DNA of 33,613 bases, taken from NCBI GenBank assembly GCA_021842405.1, contig JAKBZR010000033.1, positions 1 to 33,613 on the forward strand, read 5' to 3'. Shown one piece after another: positions 1 through 29,663 of the stretch. The number at the start of each line of letters is the position of its first letter. The stretch's first letter is position 1. The DNA comes from a bacterium (GTDB lineage Bacteria; Armatimonadota; Chthonomonadetes; Chthonomonadales; JAMCWF01). A program made the translations under genes and the position numbers. Under the pieces are notes generated by a model. It saw nothing but the letters and a program-made list of their open reading frames with translations. It did no database searches and was not told where the DNA came from.

Positions 1-252
1 TTCCCGCCTCGGGAAGGGGGACAGGGGGTTAGGTGTTAAAACAGTGAGAGTATTTTTACATTCAACTCCTCACCCCAAAATCGCCCAGAGAACTGAACTC
101 ATCCTTCAGTTTTGCGGGTAATTTAGGTAGCAGGCTCTTACCCCTATCGCAATTATCAACTCCTTCCCCCTCCTAGGGGGAAGGGTGGGATGGGGGTCAA
201 GCAAAACGCCCTCCAATATCTGCCTAAATTACCCAGAGAACTGAACTCATTC
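1..252. repeat. Two adjacent copies of the GAGTTCAG-ended repeat (family C)
   Basis: A right-end arm (CCCAGAGAACTGAACTC) at 84-100 closes one copy whose left part runs off the window or lies in 1-83. A second copy follows at once, with a degenerate left arm (TTCAGTTTTGCGGGTAATTT) near 105, a G/C-rich palindromic core around 163-188, and a right arm ending in GAACTC at 243-248. The same arms recur at several other places in the window. No coding region is seen here. The right end lies only 9 bp upstream of the glnB promoter. Confidence 0.75.
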
Positions 253-11632: not shown

Positions 11633-11671
11633 AACATTAAGAGCTTTTTGCAATATCAGCAGTCTATGAGG

Positions 11672-11850
11672 TTGTTGAAAAAGTCATCGAAGTCCGCCGC
11701 TTCATCATTCCCGCTGTCGCCTGTCTACCGTCAGGCAGGGATGCTGATGTTGTGGATTCCGGGTTCCGCTTCGTTGCCCCCTGTCTGCTCAGGCAGGCGC
11801 ACAGGCAAGCGGAATGACGACTCGGTGGGTGTTACCGTATTTTTCAACAA
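11672..11850. repeat. Repeat of family B with TTGTTGAAAAA inverted ends
   Basis: TTGTTGAAAAA (11672-11682) and its exact reverse complement (11840-11850) bound 179 bases. The interior contains CATTCCCGCTGTC and GGAATGACGA arms and a degenerate GTC/GCAGGCAG palindrome. The same ends and CATTCC/GGAATGACG arms recur near 20481, 21534, 27447 and 27906. No coding capacity is evident. It separates the radical SAM gene from the next gene. Confidence 0.75.
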
Positions 11851-11873
11851 TTTCCTATAGGGATAGGAAATTG
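11848..11873. promoter_or_regulatory. Perfect 11-bp hairpin upstream of the 1202-residue exported protein
   Basis: CAATTTCCTAT (11848-11858), a four-base loop AGGG and ATAGGAAATTG (11863-11873) form a perfect stem. It starts on the end of the family B repeat and ends 34 bases before the TTG start at 11908. It has no U-run. It may be an operator, a leader structure or part of the repeat. Confidence 0.5.
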
Positions 11874-11907: not shown

Positions 11908-14900
11908 TTGAGACCGTTCCTAAAAATTCAATTATTGATTTTCGCAGGGATCGGAATGCTGGCATTTATGGTGCCATGCCGTGGCCTCGAAATTACCTCC
12001 GGATCGGTTCGCATCGTAGCGGTGCAGCAAGCCGGACGCTGGATCGGCTTCGACCTTTATAACCGCAACCGTCTGGTCGCACCGGTACGCTTGAGCAGCA
12101 ATGGCATTTTGGCCGCCGACGTCTGCCGCGCCGAAACAAACTACCCGCGACTGGTCTTCAGCTCGCTTGAGCCATTGCCCGACAGCGGTCTTCAATTGGG
12201 CGAAAACGACTTTATTGAAGTGGCCTTAATTCCAAACCAACCCTACCCCCACGTGGTTTTTCACCTGACCATTAAGGCGTTTGATCCGGCAAAGTGGCTG
12301 GCGACGGTCGGAAAATCACCGTTCCATTTCTTATCCCTCTATATGCCCGATGCGATGGCCTGGCACATTCAAGGCTGGCTCAATGCAACCCCGCTGGCCG
12401 ACCCGTTTCCGCTGCTCATTGACCCGCATGCCGGTACGCCGGAAATTTCGGGCTATCACTACAACCGAAACTGGAGCTACACGCCGCCGCTGGGCGCTCA
12501 ATCTCTCCCTGTCATCGGCCTCTGGGCGCCGCAACGGTCCCTCTATGCCGGGCTGGAGTTTCAGTCCACCCGCCTGCTCACCAACAGCGAAAAGTTTATC
12601 GCGACCGGTTACTGCTGGAAAGAGGCGACGCCGGGTCACCCCGGTCAGTCCGAAGGGCAATTCGTCAGCCTGGTCTATCCCTACGGCGGCCTGGACTACC
12701 AGCAATTGGAGTTTCCAAAGCCCGGCGACGTGATCGCCTCCGACGGTGATCTAATCTGGAGCCAGAACCTACCGGCCACTCGCGACCCCAACGAGCTTCT
12801 CTGGAGCTTTATCTGGAAAAACTATCGTAACGATCTGCCGCGCGTCTCCCAAAGGGTTGACCTCTCCTGGCTTCCGGGCGGAGATCGGATGAAAGATTTT
12901 GATGGCCCGCCCGGCGGCAGCATTATTTATAATTCATCGAGTGGAGATGCCTTCCATACGCCGGGGACCAAAGGACTCAACGGTTGGCGCACCAACAACG
13001 AAAGCATGGTGGATGTTCCAGTTCGTGACAACGATACGAGCCGTATCTCGCAATTGGAAGATCAGGCCGCCTACCTGGTCAAAACCGCGCGCTGGTTTTA
13101 TATTGATGCAGCGGGAGCCTCCCCGAAACGTTTTCTAGCCGCTCCACCGTCGGCCTCCAACCATCTTATCCCCGATAACATTGGCGCCTACTGGTTTCAA
13201 CCGATCAAAGGAAGCTGGACCGCTGCCTTTGGCGGCAAAGCGGTTACCTCATTGCACAACTCCGACGGCTGGGCGGCCGGACGGCTGTTGCTCGATCTCT
13301 ACCGGGATCGCGGTGAAACTCAGTATCTACCCTACGTGGACGGCGTCTTTAACTGGACACGGGCGATCGCCTGGACCCGTAATGAGTTCCCCGATGTGCC
13401 CTCATCCCCCTTTGCAATCGGCGGCACGCTCTCGGCCGCGTTTTGTTTGGACTATTACTTCACCTTCAAGGATGATCCATCTCGAGCTGCCCGCGCAAAA
13501 GAGGCGCTGCAACTTGCCCGCTCCTTCGTCTATCGTTATATGACGATGTGGCCATCCGATAACAACCGCGACGATAATCTGGATTCCTCTTTCCTCTGGG
13601 AGCCCAACTCCGGTCGCGATTGGACCGGCACCGCCTGCGCCAATGAGGTCTTCTGGGATTTGGACACGCTGGGCCAGGTGGCGGTTGAAACCGGCGATCC
13701 GATCTTGATGTACGCTCTGCAGGGTTCGCTGAATCGCTGGTATCAACTTTATAAAGAAGAGTACCACCGCTCGATCGCTGCCTACCCTGGAGATGCGCTG
13801 GGTGAAGAGTACGGCCTGTTTCCCGGTCGCGAATGGTGGCCGGGAAAACATGCCCCTTACGGAACCGGCTCAACCCTCCCGATGGAATGGCCGGTGGGTG
13901 ACAGCCGGGTGCGGGTTCTGGCCGGTGAAAAGGCGGCGATGGCGTTCGATCGGGATGGCGCCGAAACCCGCATCAGCGACTACCGCTACGAGCCGACCGG
14001 CAACTTCTCCTTCCGAATTGACAGCAAGATTCCACACTCGTTCAGCCTATCGCTCACCTGCCCTTATGTTGATTTAAGTCAAAAGCCGGTCTTCATTCTG
14101 AGGGGAACTCGCCGAATTGCACTGACACCGGGCACCGATTTCATCCGTCCGCCCCAGGCGATCTGGTCGCTTACCATCAACAACGTGATGAACGGAGATA
14201 CCATCGTGGTCGGCCAGCCGAGCGGCAGCCTCCCCGTCCTGCCATCGGAGCCGCCCTTGACGGAGGAAGCCGATCCTTCCACCGCTCCAACCGGATTTCA
14301 GTACGGCGATCTCAGTTTTAATACTCAGCCCGACGCCTCTTGGCATGACCTGAGCTCCTGGTCCGGCCTCTGGCGCGGCCCTCGGTGGGTTCTTGGAGTG
14401 CCTTTTACCCTGGCGCCGGCCAGTGTAAAAAGCGCGGTTGCGGGAAAGTCCGACCTACTGCACCCGTTGGTTGCAGATGAGGTTTTCGTGCTCTATAGCG
14501 ACGGCCCCGGTCCGGCGCCTTCACTGATCCTGCAAAACGGCCGCCGCCTGCCCATTACCGATGAGCGGTCCGGGTTGGCGTGGAAGGCATGGCCGCCGAT
14601 TTTCACCGCCCGCCTGCTGGCCGGATGGGTCAATACCGGTGACCAGCCGGTTACTGGGGTGGATGCCGGCAATCGGCTCGTGTTTGCCGTCACCGGCGCC
14701 GCCCGCAATTTGATCAGTCGGGAGGCGCTGCAGTTCGGAATCGACTCTTTGCAGAGCTTGCAGGCGCAGGATCGCTTCGCGAACAGCCTTCGCAATGAGG
14801 CCGCTCCCATTCCGGACGGCAGTTTCGCCATCTTGCCACCTGCTCCGGCCGCATCCTCCATCTCCGCCCTATTCCAGATGTCCGGGCTGAGCAGCAAAGC

Positions 14901-15516
14901 GGTGCGCTTGACGCCGCAGCAGTTGGTGGATTCGAGTCAATTTAATCCTCAGAAAGTTAAAGCCGCCTTCGATTTGGATGATGAGCAATACATTCAAACC
15001 GTCAATACCCCCAACGACGCCGCCGATGCGCTGGTTCAGTACGTGCGGAACGGCGGCGCGCTCATCTTGATGGCCGGCCAGCCCTGGCCGCTCTTCTATC
15101 CGGTCGGCCTCGGCGGGCAACCATTTCCAGCCGATCCGTTGACCGGCCGTCTGGGATTGCCGCTGGTGAACACCATTGAAACGCTTCCCAACGAGGCGCT
15201 CCATATCGAGGAGGCGCCCGGTCAAGCCCTGTTCTCCAGTTTGCCTAAAGAGATTCCCTATCCCACTGATAACCCGCGGCTGCGAGCCATCACCGCCAGC
15301 ACCTTCCCGCCCGGCGTAAAATATCAGCCGATCTACCGGGTTATCGGGGCGAGCGGCAAGGACTACGGGGTGGCCGCCGCCCTGCTCACCTTCCCTGGAG
15401 GCGGTCGCATCCTCTATATCTCGGATGTGCTGACCACTTACCCCGAATACAGCCGACCGCTTGTGGTAGATACTATTCGCTGGTTAAGTCAAATCACAAC
15501 CGGCACCGGAAAGTGA
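11908..15516 (+). CDS. Large exported protein with a probable alpha/alpha-toroid domain and a GATase-like C-terminal domain
   Basis: This 1202-residue protein starts with a signal peptide (hydrophobic LLIFAGIGMLAFMV, then PCRG). The first ~340 residues look like beta-rich structure. Residues about 440-640 contain repeated helical hairpins with aromatic motifs (HNSDGWAAGRLLLDLYRD, FNWTRAIAWTRNEFPD, CANEVFWDLDTLGQVA), which recall the six-hairpin toroids of glycosidases and lyases. The last ~200 residues (DDEQYIQTVNTPNDAADALVQYV in two parts, NGGALILMAGQPWP) resemble the glutamine-amidotransferase-like fold of ThuA-type or BPL_N proteins. The TTG start has AGGAGG (11894-11899) eight bases upstream. 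It probably acts on a polysaccharide outside the cell, but I cannot name a family and the enzymatic role is a guess. Confidence 0.7.
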   Translation: MRPFLKIQLLIFAGIGMLAFMVPCRGLEITSGSVRIVAVQQAGRWIGFDLYNRNRLVAPVRLSSNGILAADVCRAETNYPRLVFSSLEPLPDSGLQLGENDFIEVALIPNQPYPHVVFHLTIKAFDPAKWLATVGKSPFHFLSLYMPDAMAWHIQGWLNATPLADPFPLLIDPHAGTPEISGYHYNRNWSYTPPLGAQSLPVIGLWAPQRSLYAGLEFQSTRLLTNSEKFIATGYCWKEATPGHPGQSEGQFVSLVYPYGGLDYQQLEFPKPGDVIASDGDLIWSQNLPATRDPNELLWSFIWKNYRNDLPRVSQRVDLSWLPGGDRMKDFDGPPGGSIIYNSSSGDAFHTPGTKGLNGWRTNNESMVDVPVRDNDTSRISQLEDQAAYLVKTARWFYIDAAGASPKRFLAAPPSASNHLIPDNIGAYWFQPIKGSWTAAFGGKAVTSLHNSDGWAAGRLLLDLYRDRGETQYLPYVDGVFNWTRAIAWTRNEFPDVPSSPFAIGGTLSAAFCLDYYFTFKDDPSRAARAKEALQLARSFVYRYMTMWPSDNNRDDNLDSSFLWEPNSGRDWTGTACANEVFWDLDTLGQVAVETGDPILMYALQGSLNRWYQLYKEEYHRSIAAYPGDALGEEYGLFPGREWWPGKHAPYGTGSTLPMEWPVGDSRVRVLAGEKAAMAFDRDGAETRISDYRYEPTGNFSFRIDSKIPHSFSLSLTCPYVDLSQKPVFILRGTRRIALTPGTDFIRPPQAIWSLTINNVMNGDTIVVGQPSGSLPVLPSEPPLTEEADPSTAPTGFQYGDLSFNTQPDASWHDLSSWSGLWRGPRWVLGVPFTLAPASVKSAVAGKSDLLHPLVADEVFVLYSDGPGPAPSLILQNGRRLPITDERSGLAWKAWPPIFTARLLAGWVNTGDQPVTGVDAGNRLVFAVTGAARNLISREALQFGIDSLQSLQAQDRFANSLRNEAAPIPDGSFAILPPAPAASSISALFQMSGLSSKAVRLTPQQLVDSSQFNPQKVKAAFDLDDEQYIQTVNTPNDAADALVQYVRNGGALILMAGQPWPLFYPVGLGGQPFPADPLTGRLGLPLVNTIETLPNEALHIEEAPGQALFSSLPKEIPYPTDNPRLRAITASTFPPGVKYQPIYRVIGASGKDYGVAAALLTFPGGGRILYISDVLTTYPEYSRPLVVDTIRWLSQITTGTGK

Positions 15517-15589: not shown

Positions 15590-15849
15590 TTCCCCCTCTC
15601 AGGGGGAAGGGATTCGGATTGGGTTTTGGCGATTACTACGTCGCACCGCATCCTTGCCTTCCACCTTACAACCGTTCCGTGCTCCTTCCCCTCCCAGGGG
15701 GAAGGCTGGGATGGGGGTTGACGGGTGTACTCTAATATTTACTCTTGTTTCTTCCATTGATTGACTCGTACCCCATCCTGGCCTGGGAGAAGAAGGGGGG
15801 GCTGGGGTGGGGGCGAACGAAAATTATTCCCGCAAAACTGAACTCTTAC
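15590..15849. repeat. Family C repeat, long variant
   Basis: The right arm (GCGAACGAAAATTATTCCCG then CAAAACTGAACTC, ending 15845) is typical of family C; the left arm is degraded. The core holds two palindromes of the type CTTCCCC..GGGGAAG. From about 15590 to 15830 the sequence is nearly identical, in inverted orientation, to 29330-29560. Nothing coding is supported here. Confidence 0.75.
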
Positions 15850-17222: not shown

Positions 17223-17429
17223 GAATGAGTTCAGTTTTGTGGGAATGATTTTCGTTCGCCCACCCCGGCCTTCCACCTTACGATTGCTCAACTCTACAAT
17301 TGTCCTACTCTTTTCCCCCTCGCAACCGTTCCGTGCTCCTTCCCCCTCCCAGGGGGAAGGTCGGGATGGGGGTCAAGACACACCGCCCTGCAACACCCGC
17401 CTAAATTACCCAGAGAACTGAACTCTTAC
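17223..17429. repeat. Family C repeat copy
   Basis: GAGTTCAGTTTTGTGGG (from 17227) and CCCAGAGAACTGAACTC (to 17425) are inverted ends around a core with the palindrome CTTCCCCCTCCCAGGGGGAAG. The flanking 8-mers (17215-17222 and 17430-17437) do not match, unlike two other copies. The 16948-17500 gap holds this repeat and no gene. Confidence 0.8.
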
Positions 17430-19393: not shown

Positions 19394-19638
19394 GAATGAA
19401 TTCAGTTTTGCGGAAAATAAAAAGTGAACGGGTAAATCACCTCACCCCCTAACCCCCTCTCCGAACTCGGAGAGGGGGCAGAAGAAAGTATCCGGCTTCC
19501 TTCCCCCTCCGAGGGGGGAGGGGATTAAGAAGGACTGGGGGGCAAGATAAAAGCACCGCCGCTAAACTCCCTCCCCGCTTGCGGGGAGGGCTGGGGTGGG
19601 GTCGAACGAAAATCATTCCCGTAAAACTGAACTATTAC
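19394..19638. repeat. Family C repeat copy
   Basis: GAATTCAGTTTTGCGG (from 19398) and CCCGTAAAACTGAACTA (to 19634) are inverted ends with one mismatch each to the consensus. The interior has G/C-rich palindromes (CCCTCTCCGAACTCGGAGAGGG and others). Its right end touches the HsdS relic. Confidence 0.75.
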
Positions 19639-19904: not shown

Positions 19905-19923
19905 ATGATTGAGCATCGTTATC

Positions 19924-20036
19924 GAACGAGTTCAGTTCTCTGGGTAATTTAGGCAGCAGGCTTTACCCCTGCACCCCCTCGGGGAGGGCTGGGGCGGGGG
20001 CGAACGAAAATTATTCCCGCAAAACTGAACTCTTAC
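19924..20036. repeat. Compact family C element with a perfect 8-bp target duplication
   Basis: GAGTTCAGTTCTCTGGG (from 19928) and CCCGCAAAACTGAACTC (to 20032) are the inverted ends of this 113-bp copy. The 8-mer TCGTTATC occurs directly before (19916-19923) and directly after it (20037-20044). This is the expected footprint of a transposase-mobilised non-autonomous element. It has no coding capacity. Confidence 0.85.
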
Positions 20037-20121
20037 TCGTTATCGGTGCCGCTCGGTTAAGTGTCCTTACAGAGGACAGTTCACTTCGTTAGTTGATCAG
20101 ACGATGCTTTGCGGAGAGGAA

Positions 20122-20480: not shown

Positions 20481-20627
20481 TGGTGTTGAAAATAGAGCGA
20501 TACCCAGCGGGACGTCATTCTGAGGCCGCGAAGCGGAGCCTATAAGCAAGAACATCAGCATCGGACTGGTTTCCCGCTTTCGCGGGAATGACGAAGCGAC
20601 GGATTTCGGCGATTGTTTCAACAACCA
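20481..20627. repeat. Family B repeat copy, diverged
   Basis: GTGTTGAAAAT near 20484 and GTTTCAACAAC near 20615 are diverged inverted ends. Inside are CGTCATTCTGAGG, and CCCGCTTTCGCGGG followed by AATGACG, which match other family B copies. It fills most of the gap between the small membrane protein and the pilin gene. Confidence 0.65.
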
Positions 20628-20672
20628 CATAAGCACCCATCCAATCAGTCTATAAAGAAAGGATTTTCACTG

Positions 20673-27442: not shown

Positions 27443-27565
27443 ATGGTTGTTGAAAAATTGTTGGATACCGCCGCACCGTCATTCCCGCATGGCTCCACTC
27501 CAGTGGAGTGGATGGCGGGAATCCAGTTCCTTGACTTTCGGCAGGTATAAATACTGATATTCTAT

Positions 27566-27657
27566 TGTCATTGCGAGAAGCCGCGTAGCGGCGACAAAGC
27601 AATCTCATCTTTTCGGAAGGGGATTGCTTCGCTCCCTGCGGTCGCTCGCAATGACAA
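27566..27657. repeat. 92-bp inverted repeat with GTCATTGCGAG ends (family D)
   Basis: TTGTCATTGCGAG at the left and CTCGCAATGACAA at the right are perfect inverted ends. Inner arms include GCCGCGTAGCGGC, AAGCAATC and GATTGCTTCGC. Repeats of this type are scattered in intergenic regions of many bacterial genomes. Only one copy is in this window. Confidence 0.75.
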
Positions 27658-27665
27658 GACTGCGA

Positions 27666-27811
27666 GAATGAGTTCAGTTCTCTGGGTAATTTAAGCAGCA
27701 GGCTTTTACCTCTATAGCAATAATCAACTCCCTCCCCCCCTCGTGGGGGAGGGTTGGGGTGGGGGGCGACCAATGCTGCTAGAAAACATTCCCCGAAAAT
27801 TGAACTCTTTC
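27666..27811. repeat. Family C element with a perfect 8-bp target duplication
   Basis: GAGTTCAGTTCTCTGGG (from 27670) and the diverged right arm ending TGAACTC (27807) bound this 146-bp copy. The 8-mer GACTGCGA occurs directly before (27658-27665) and directly after (27812-27819). The offset from GAGTTC/GAACTC is four bases on each side, exactly as at 19924-20036. Confidence 0.85.
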
Positions 27812-27926
27812 GACTGCGAAGCATTCTCATTTCCGATAGATACTCAACTGGATTCCGGGTTCCGCTCTGCGGCCCCGGAATGACGATCCGGTGGATGCTG
27901 CTGTATTTTTCAACAATCACTTAGTA

Positions 27927-29290: not shown

Positions 29291-29663
29291 GAAAGAGTTC
29301 AATTTTATGGGAATGTTTTATAGCAGCATTGGTCGCCCCCCACCCCAACCCTCCTTCTTCTCCCAGGCCAGGATGGGGTACGAGTCAATCAATGGAAGAA
29401 ACAAGGGTAAATATTAGAGTACACCCGTCAACCCCCATCCCGGCCTTCCCCCTGGGAGGGGGAAGGAGCACGGAACGGTTGCGAGGGGGAAGGCAAGCAT
29501 GTGATGCAACGTAGTAATCGCCAAAACCCAGTCCGAATCCCTTCCCCCTCCCAGGGGGAAGGCTAGGATGGGGGTCGGCCTAATGCACTCCCAAGCCCCC
29601 CTTCTTCTCCCAGACCAGGATGGGGGTCGAACGAAAATCATTCCCATAAAACTGAACTCATTC
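29291..29663. repeat. Long composite family C repeat, inverted relative to the 15.6-15.8 kb copy
   Basis: GAGTTCAATTTTATGGG (from 29295) and CCCATAAAACTGAACTC (to 29659) are the outer inverted ends. Between them are three G/C-rich palindromes. The part 29330-29560 is almost identical to 15590-15830 read on the opposite strand, including the non-palindromic stretch with CTAATATTTAC. No gene is seen between 29181 and 29691. Confidence 0.8.

What the first reader, a model, noticed from the sequence alone, without database searches (positions are those of the whole stretch)
19916..20044. Transposing MITE-like family with 8-bp target duplications
Two copies of the GAGTTCAG-ended element (19924-20036 and 27666-27811) are flanked by different but perfect 8-bp direct repeats (TCGTTATC; GACTGCGA). 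In both cases the duplication begins exactly four bases outside GAGTTC and GAACTC. The agreement of offset and length is hard to explain by chance and shows that this intergenic repeat is, or recently was, mobilised by a transposase making 8-bp staggered cuts. The copies vary in the G/C-rich core but share arms, as expected of non-autonomous elements. No transposase is in the window.
Basis: partly seen in the sequence, partly recalled or inferred. Interest (0 to 1): 0.65.

Follow-up and report, generated by a model that had tools for sequence, protein, structure and literature searches.

The report
High-copy IS66-derived MITEs with 8-bp duplications
The short repeat is a real, non-coding mobile element present in roughly 250-340 copies in this bacterial genome; its ends match those of IS66-family insertion sequences in other genomes of the same phylum, so it is a large but ordinary case of small DNA parasites that borrow another element's transposase.

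Summary
Both window copies (19924-20036 and 27666-27811) carry perfect 8-bp direct repeats starting exactly outside a terminal G-W-A-N. In the rest of the genome, arm pairs show 8-bp duplications at the same offset: 33 of 88 pairs match at 6/8 or better, 21 perfectly, against about 1.1 and 0.3 expected from shuffling. About 670 arms lie in the 3.5-Mb genome, against 2 for the reversed-pattern control. Empty sites exist: two orthologous in a same-genus genome, and uninterrupted copies of the dispersed repeat that window copy 2 split. I add the likely mobiliser. The 21-bp end GWAWSAGTTCAGTTYTNYGGG occurs, with matching 8-bp duplications, in other families of the phylum. There it bounds an intact single-ORF IS66-family insertion sequence (G239, 1534 bp, 470-aa transposase, one end 21/21) and a broken copy in G243 whose two ends share an 8-bp repeat. 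It also bounds an internally deleted copy. No IS66 transposase is found in the window's own assembly. Verdict: IS66 (ISBst12-group)-type MITEs with interchangeable half-elements; present activity unknown.

The parts
19916..19923 (.). left 8-bp target-site duplication TCGTTATC of copy 1
19924..20036 (+). MITE copy 1 (113 bp): class A arm (GAACGAGTTCAGTTCTCTGGGTAATTTAGGCAG) and class B arm (GTAAGAGTTCAGTTTTGCGGGAATAATTTTCGTTCG), GC-rich core
20037..20044 (.). right 8-bp target-site duplication TCGTTATC of copy 1
27658..27665 (.). left 8-bp target-site duplication GACTGCGA of copy 2
27666..27811 (+). MITE copy 2 (146 bp): class A arm and class C arm (GAAAGAGTTCAATTTTCGGGGAATGTTTTCTAGCAGCATT); inserted in a dispersed repeat whose uninterrupted copies lie in L006 and L034
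27812..27819 (.). right 8-bp target-site duplication GACTGCGA of copy 2
17223..17429 (+). further full-length copy, two intact ends, no matching duplication
19394..19638 (+). further full-length copy with degraded ends, no matching duplication
29291..29663 (+). longer composite copy (373 bp), two intact ends, no matching duplication
15805..15849 (-). right arm of a further copy (GTAAGAGTTCAGTTTTGCGGG end); inner boundary arbitrary; the partner arm is not recognisable within 700 bp
1..252 (-). contig end lies inside a composite copy: ends at 252 (GAATGAGTTCAG) and an internal arm at 104, the same junction as in the long copy of L048 (around 2478-2864)

Best explanation
The repeat is a non-autonomous miniature transposon (MITE). 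An IS66-family DDE transposase of the single-ORF (ISBst12-like) kind would bind the 21-bp inverted ends GWAWSAGTTCAGTTYTNYGGG, join the element to a target cut with an 8-bp stagger, and host repair would then duplicate those 8 bp. The elements carry no gene and would be moved in trans. They have reached roughly 250-340 copies between genes. The transposase can ignore the interior, so half-elements with different interiors (classes A-I, joined at GC-rich hairpins) have been recombined and the hybrids still transposed. Shown from sequence: ends, 8-bp duplications, copy number, empty sites, intergenic bias, hybrid copies with duplications, and an IS66 element with the same ends in the same phylum. 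Inferred: that this transposase (or a lost or unassembled sister) moved the copies in this genome, the chemistry, and the order of recombination and transposition.
For: 8-bp duplications at fixed offset, 33/88 arm pairs against ~1.1 expected; 674 arm matches against 2 in the reversed-pattern control. Orthologous empty sites in same-genus G001 for L008:170 and L008:1501, and uninterrupted copies of the repeat split by window copy 2. Same 21-bp ends in 16 of 291 genomes of the phylum, with high counts only in G000, G001, G239 and G240 and controls essentially zero; perfect 8-bp duplications there too. IS66-family IS in G239 (L164:1-1534, 470-aa ORF, NF033517 250.6 bits against a cut-off of 180; PF03050 E=8e-41) with ends matching 21/21 and 19/21. 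In G243, C71:1-126 encodes an IS66 transposase C-terminus next to a 21/21 end, and the same 8-mer AATCATTG flanks this end and the matching end on C252. Internally deleted 421-bp IS66 copy with the same kind of ends in G239 (L199:305-725). Literature: IS66 has 20-30-bp ends beginning GTAAGCG and 8-bp repeats (PMC11946415); ISDge4 of the ISBst12 group has one 449-aa transposase, an end GTAACTGCTCAGCA and an 8-bp repeat (PMC12898284).
Against: No IS66 transposase in the window's own assembly or in same-genus G001, which is only 64% complete. The outermost bases are often GAAT or GAAA rather than the canonical GTAA. No intact autonomous copy with both 21-bp ends and a complete 8-bp duplication was seen in one contig: the G239 IS starts exactly at a contig end and the G243 copy is split over two contigs. 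More than half of the nearest arm pairs (37 of 68) show no duplication.
Confidence: 0.9

Rival explanations
1. A MITE family moved by a transposase of another family that also makes 8-bp duplications (for example IS256).
For: 8 bp is not unique to IS66, and no IS66 transposase is in this assembly. IS256-type transposases occur in the phylum.
Against: PF00872 finds no IS256 transposase in G000 or G001, and none of the 30 IS256 loci fetched from the phylum has these ends with a matching duplication. IS66 elements in the phylum do have these ends. Other 8-bp families (IS1595, ISL3, IS6, IS1) were not searched.
Confidence: 0.06
2. REP/BIME-type palindromic repeats spread by a TnpA-REP (Y1) enzyme or by replication slippage, without target duplication.
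For: Intergenic, GC-rich, strongly folding (z -2.6 and -4.8), very many copies.
Against: Perfect 8-bp duplications at fixed offset, conserved 21-bp ends identical to those of an IS, and empty sites lacking the second copy of the duplication.
Confidence: 0.02
3. The copies are kept because they act on RNA (terminators or processing hairpins), and mobility is secondary.
For: Almost all duplication-bearing copies lie between genes (1 of 33 inside an ORF of 200 aa or more, although such ORFs cover 70% of the sequence), and both window copies fold better than shuffles.
Against: Purging of insertions in genes explains the bias equally well; long inverted repeats fold well regardless of use; no Rfam match in the window; arms differ between copies while only the outer 21 bp are constant, as expected of transposase binding.
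Confidence: 0.05
4. Chance: inverted repeats and matching 8-mers in a repeat-rich genome.
For: None beyond the richness in repeats.
Against: 21 perfect matches against 0.3 expected, concentrated at one offset and one length.
Confidence: 0.001

Closest known systems
IS66 family, ISBst12 group (for example ISDge4 of Deinococcus geothermalis, PMC12898284)
   Same: Single transposase ORF of about 440-470 aa matching NF033517/PF03050, terminal GTAA...TCAG-type ends, 8-bp duplication.
   Different: The window elements have no ORF and are 113-441 bp; outer bases vary (GTAA, GAAT, GAAA, GTAT); the inner part of the end, TTYTNYGGG, is specific to this phylum's lineage.
Bacterial IS-derived MITEs (for example MITECca01 from ISCca4/IS982, PMC9769881; Chunjie and QMITE families reviewed in PMC10969869)
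   Same: Short, non-coding, ends shared with an IS, target duplications, mainly intergenic, size variants and degraded copies.
   Different: Parent is of the IS66 family, which I did not find named as a MITE parent in the papers I could search; copy number lies between the 150 ERIC copies of Salmonella and the 711 of Photorhabdus cited in PMC10969869; half-elements occur in many combinations.
Tn3-derived TIMEs that generate mosaic non-autonomous transposons (PMC4133298; title and start of abstract only)
   Same: Non-autonomous elements whose content between ends recognised in trans can be exchanged.
   Different: Different transposase family; here the mosaics are among short half-elements rather than composites carrying other genes.

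Membership tests
MITE (non-autonomous miniature transposon) | short element without transposase gene | tested here: met
   duplication-bearing copies are 113-441 bp including ends
MITE (non-autonomous miniature transposon) | terminal inverted repeats | tested here: met
   21-bp consensus over 186 arms
MITE (non-autonomous miniature transposon) | target-site duplication of fixed length | tested here: met
   8 bp at fixed offset, 33/88 pairs against ~1.1 expected
MITE (non-autonomous miniature transposon) | empty sites | tested here: met
   two orthologous in G001; uninterrupted paralogues for window copy 2; no orthologue of the flanks of copy 1 found in G001
MITE (non-autonomous miniature transposon) | ends shared with an autonomous element | tested here: met
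   IS66 element in G239 and G243, same phylum; none in the own genome
MITE (non-autonomous miniature transposon) | mobilised in trans by that transposase | not testable with these tools
   needs an assay
IS66 family / ISBst12 group (for the G239 element, the proposed parent type) | IS66-type DDE transposase | tested here: met
   NF033517 250.6 bits (cut-off 180), PF03050 E=8e-41; D234, D283, E400 invariant in A1
IS66 family / ISBst12 group (for the G239 element, the proposed parent type) | single ORF, no TnpA/TnpB accessory genes | tested here: met
   only one ORF of 150 aa or more in L164:1-1534, and it spans 9-1421; shorter ORFs were not examined
IS66 family / ISBst12 group (for the G239 element, the proposed parent type) | 8-bp target duplication | tested here: inconclusive
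   the G239 copy starts at a contig end; the G243 copy shows AATCATTG at both ends but on two contigs; the related IS in L110 has CGTATTCT on both sides
IS66 family / ISBst12 group (for the G239 element, the proposed parent type) | ends begin GTAA (GTAAGCG in classical members) | tested here: inconclusive
   related IS in L110, L115, L117, L124 begin GTAA; G239 begins GTAT/GAGT; MITEs GWAW
REP/BIME | palindromic repeat spread without target duplication | tested here: not met
   8-bp duplications
IS256-derived MITE | ends shared with IS256-family elements | tested here: not met
   no IS256 transposase in G000 or G001; none of 30 fetched loci has these ends with a duplication

The most novel reading that the evidence does not exclude
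A phylum-restricted IS66 (ISBst12-type) MITE superfamily that has outlived its own transposase in this genus, reached hundreds of copies, and diversified by shuffling half-elements: at least eight arm combinations carry their own target duplications, meaning that hybrids formed by recombination were themselves transposed.
Probability: 0.35. Interest if true: 0.45.

Novelty: new member of a known kind. Interest (0 to 1): 0.33.

Why it matters
It explains a dominant repeat of this genome, gives it a likely transposase, and suggests why contig ends fall inside copies. IS66-derived MITEs are little described in the papers I could search, and the many hybrid copies with their own duplications offer a natural record of how non-autonomous elements recombine and stay mobile.

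Tried and rejected
IS256 as parent: end sequences looked possible, but none of 30 IS256 loci has these ends with a duplication. Autonomous copy in the own genome: no arm pair 500-6000 bp apart with a matching duplication among 511 pairs in the loci fetched by then; no IS66 transposase by Pfam model, by protein or by profile. Exchange of flanks between copies by reciprocal recombination: 1 non-adjacent flank match against 0.26 expected, no support. Target preference: no clear consensus in 21 perfect duplications. Orthologous empty site of window copy 1: flanks not conserved in G001. Rfam: no match. The first 30 loci were picked by similarity to copy 1, so the sample is not random.

Full report
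Observation. Both copies are as described. Copy 1 is TCGTTATC | GAACGAGTTCAG...CTGAACTCTTAC | TCGTTATC at 19916-20044; copy 2 is GACTGCGA | GAATGAGTTCAG...TTGAACTCTTTC | GACTGCGA at 27658-27819. The window is contig C54 of a 3.5-Mb, 174-contig, 97%-complete assembly. The arm pattern GAGTTCARTTYTNTGGG with up to two mismatches occurs 336 + 338 times there, against 1 + 1 for the pattern read backwards. Two ends per element would give at most about 340 elements; in the sample 136 of 186 arms had a partner, which suggests about 250 paired elements plus solo arms.

Test of the duplications. In the fetched stretches I paired facing arms less than 700 bp apart (88 pairs). At offset 4, 21 pairs have identical 8-mers and 12 more match at 6 or 7 of 8; shuffled partners give 0.3 and about 1.1. 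Other symmetric offsets, and lengths over 8, give no comparable excess. The four bases outside GAGTTC are conserved (G, A/T, A, A/T), so the element ends are GWAW + SAGTTCAGTTYTNYGGG and the duplication abuts the element exactly. With nearest-partner pairing, 31 of 68 elements keep a duplication. The duplications share no clear consensus. The first 30 loci were chosen by similarity to copy 1 and the rest by place; the sample is about 10% of the genome.

Empty sites. Joined flanks of duplication-bearing copies were compared with all fetched sequence. Two insertions in L008 have continuous orthologous sites in the same-genus genome G001 (L069). Window copy 2 sits inside a dispersed repeat whose uninterrupted copies in L006 and L034 align across the junction at 78% and 85%. 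The flanks of copy 1 have no counterpart in G001.

What moves it. PF00872 (IS256) transposases occur in the phylum, but none of the 30 fetched loci has these ends with a duplication. IS66 (PF03050) elements in the phylum include several with GTAASAGYTCAS ends; one of them (L110) is intact, with a 442-aa ORF and a perfect 8-bp repeat CGTATTCT. A scan of 291 genomes of the phylum with the full 21-bp end (one mismatch allowed) found 577 matches in the own genome, 100 in G001, 29 in G239, 61 in G240 and a few in one further family, with essentially no control matches. Elements in those genomes also carry 8-bp duplications. G243 and G239 are decisive. In G243 a contig starts inside an IS66 transposase C-terminus, followed by a 21/21 end and AATCATTG; the other end, on a second contig, is preceded by the same AATCATTG. 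In G239 a 1534-bp IS has a single 470-aa IS66 transposase (NF033517 250.6 bits against a cut-off of 180) and ends matching the MITE consensus at 21/21 and 19/21; a second copy of its end is on another contig. G239 also has a 421-bp copy whose transposase gene has lost its middle but keeps both ends, a plausible stage in MITE birth. Published IS66 elements have ends beginning GTAAGCG and 8-bp repeats (PMC11946415), and ISDge4 of the single-ORF ISBst12 group has a 449-aa transposase, an end GTAACTGCTCAGCA and an 8-bp repeat (PMC12898284).

What is missing. No IS66 transposase is found in the window's own assembly by Pfam model, by protein or by profile, and no long autonomous pair was seen in the fetched stretches. 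Multi-copy insertion sequences are often lost from such assemblies (general knowledge), so this does not show true absence.

Anatomy. The interior is not one sequence but a set of half-elements (classes A to I, by the sequence after the common end). A-B, A-C, B-D, B-E, B-F, A-D, C-E and A-I combinations all occur with their own duplications; window copy 1 is A-B and copy 2 is A-C. The simplest reading, an inference, is recombination between copies at their similar GC-rich cores, followed by transposition of the hybrids. Copies avoid genes: 1 of 33 lies in an ORF of 200 aa or more, although such ORFs cover 70% of that sequence. Both window copies fold more stably than shuffles (z -2.6, -4.8), which long inverted repeats do anyway.

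Conclusion. The most likely mobiliser is an IS66-family transposase of the ISBst12 kind. This is a new member of a known kind. The copy number, the apparent orphan state and the mixing of half-elements make it a good example rather than a surprise.

Noticed in passing
window 11664-11851, 20582-20631, 27445-27924: A second dispersed repeat family with ends like GTTGTTGAAAAAT...ATTTTTCAACAATCAC, probably another MITE or IS remnant; window copy 2 of the GAGTTCAG element is inserted inside one copy.
   Followed up: partly
window 27565-27657; also inside copies in L014, L023, L026, L032: A palindromic repeat around GTCATTGCGAG...GCGAAGCAATC that occurs alone and inside some of the longer MITE copies.
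   Followed up: no
window 1-252; starts of contigs C13, C20, C28, C32: Arms of the family lie within about 300 bp of several contig ends, so copies of the family probably break the assembly.
   Followed up: partly
L199:305-725 (G239:C446): IS66 copy with both ends but an internal deletion joining about residue 63 to about residue 387 of the transposase profile: a possible intermediate between insertion sequence and MITE.
   Followed up: partly
L164:1535-1560 (G239): Right next to the G239 IS66 element lies a second, different IS66-type end (GTAATAGTTCACTATTGGTGAGTAC), suggesting insertion beside another IS66 relative.
   Followed up: no
L010:1500-1820: Composite copy: an outer pair of ends with a perfect duplication GTCAAATC encloses a further facing end at 1631 followed by other sequence.
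   Followed up: no
window 11908-15516: A 1202-aa ORF without any Pfam match at E 1e-5.
   Followed up: no
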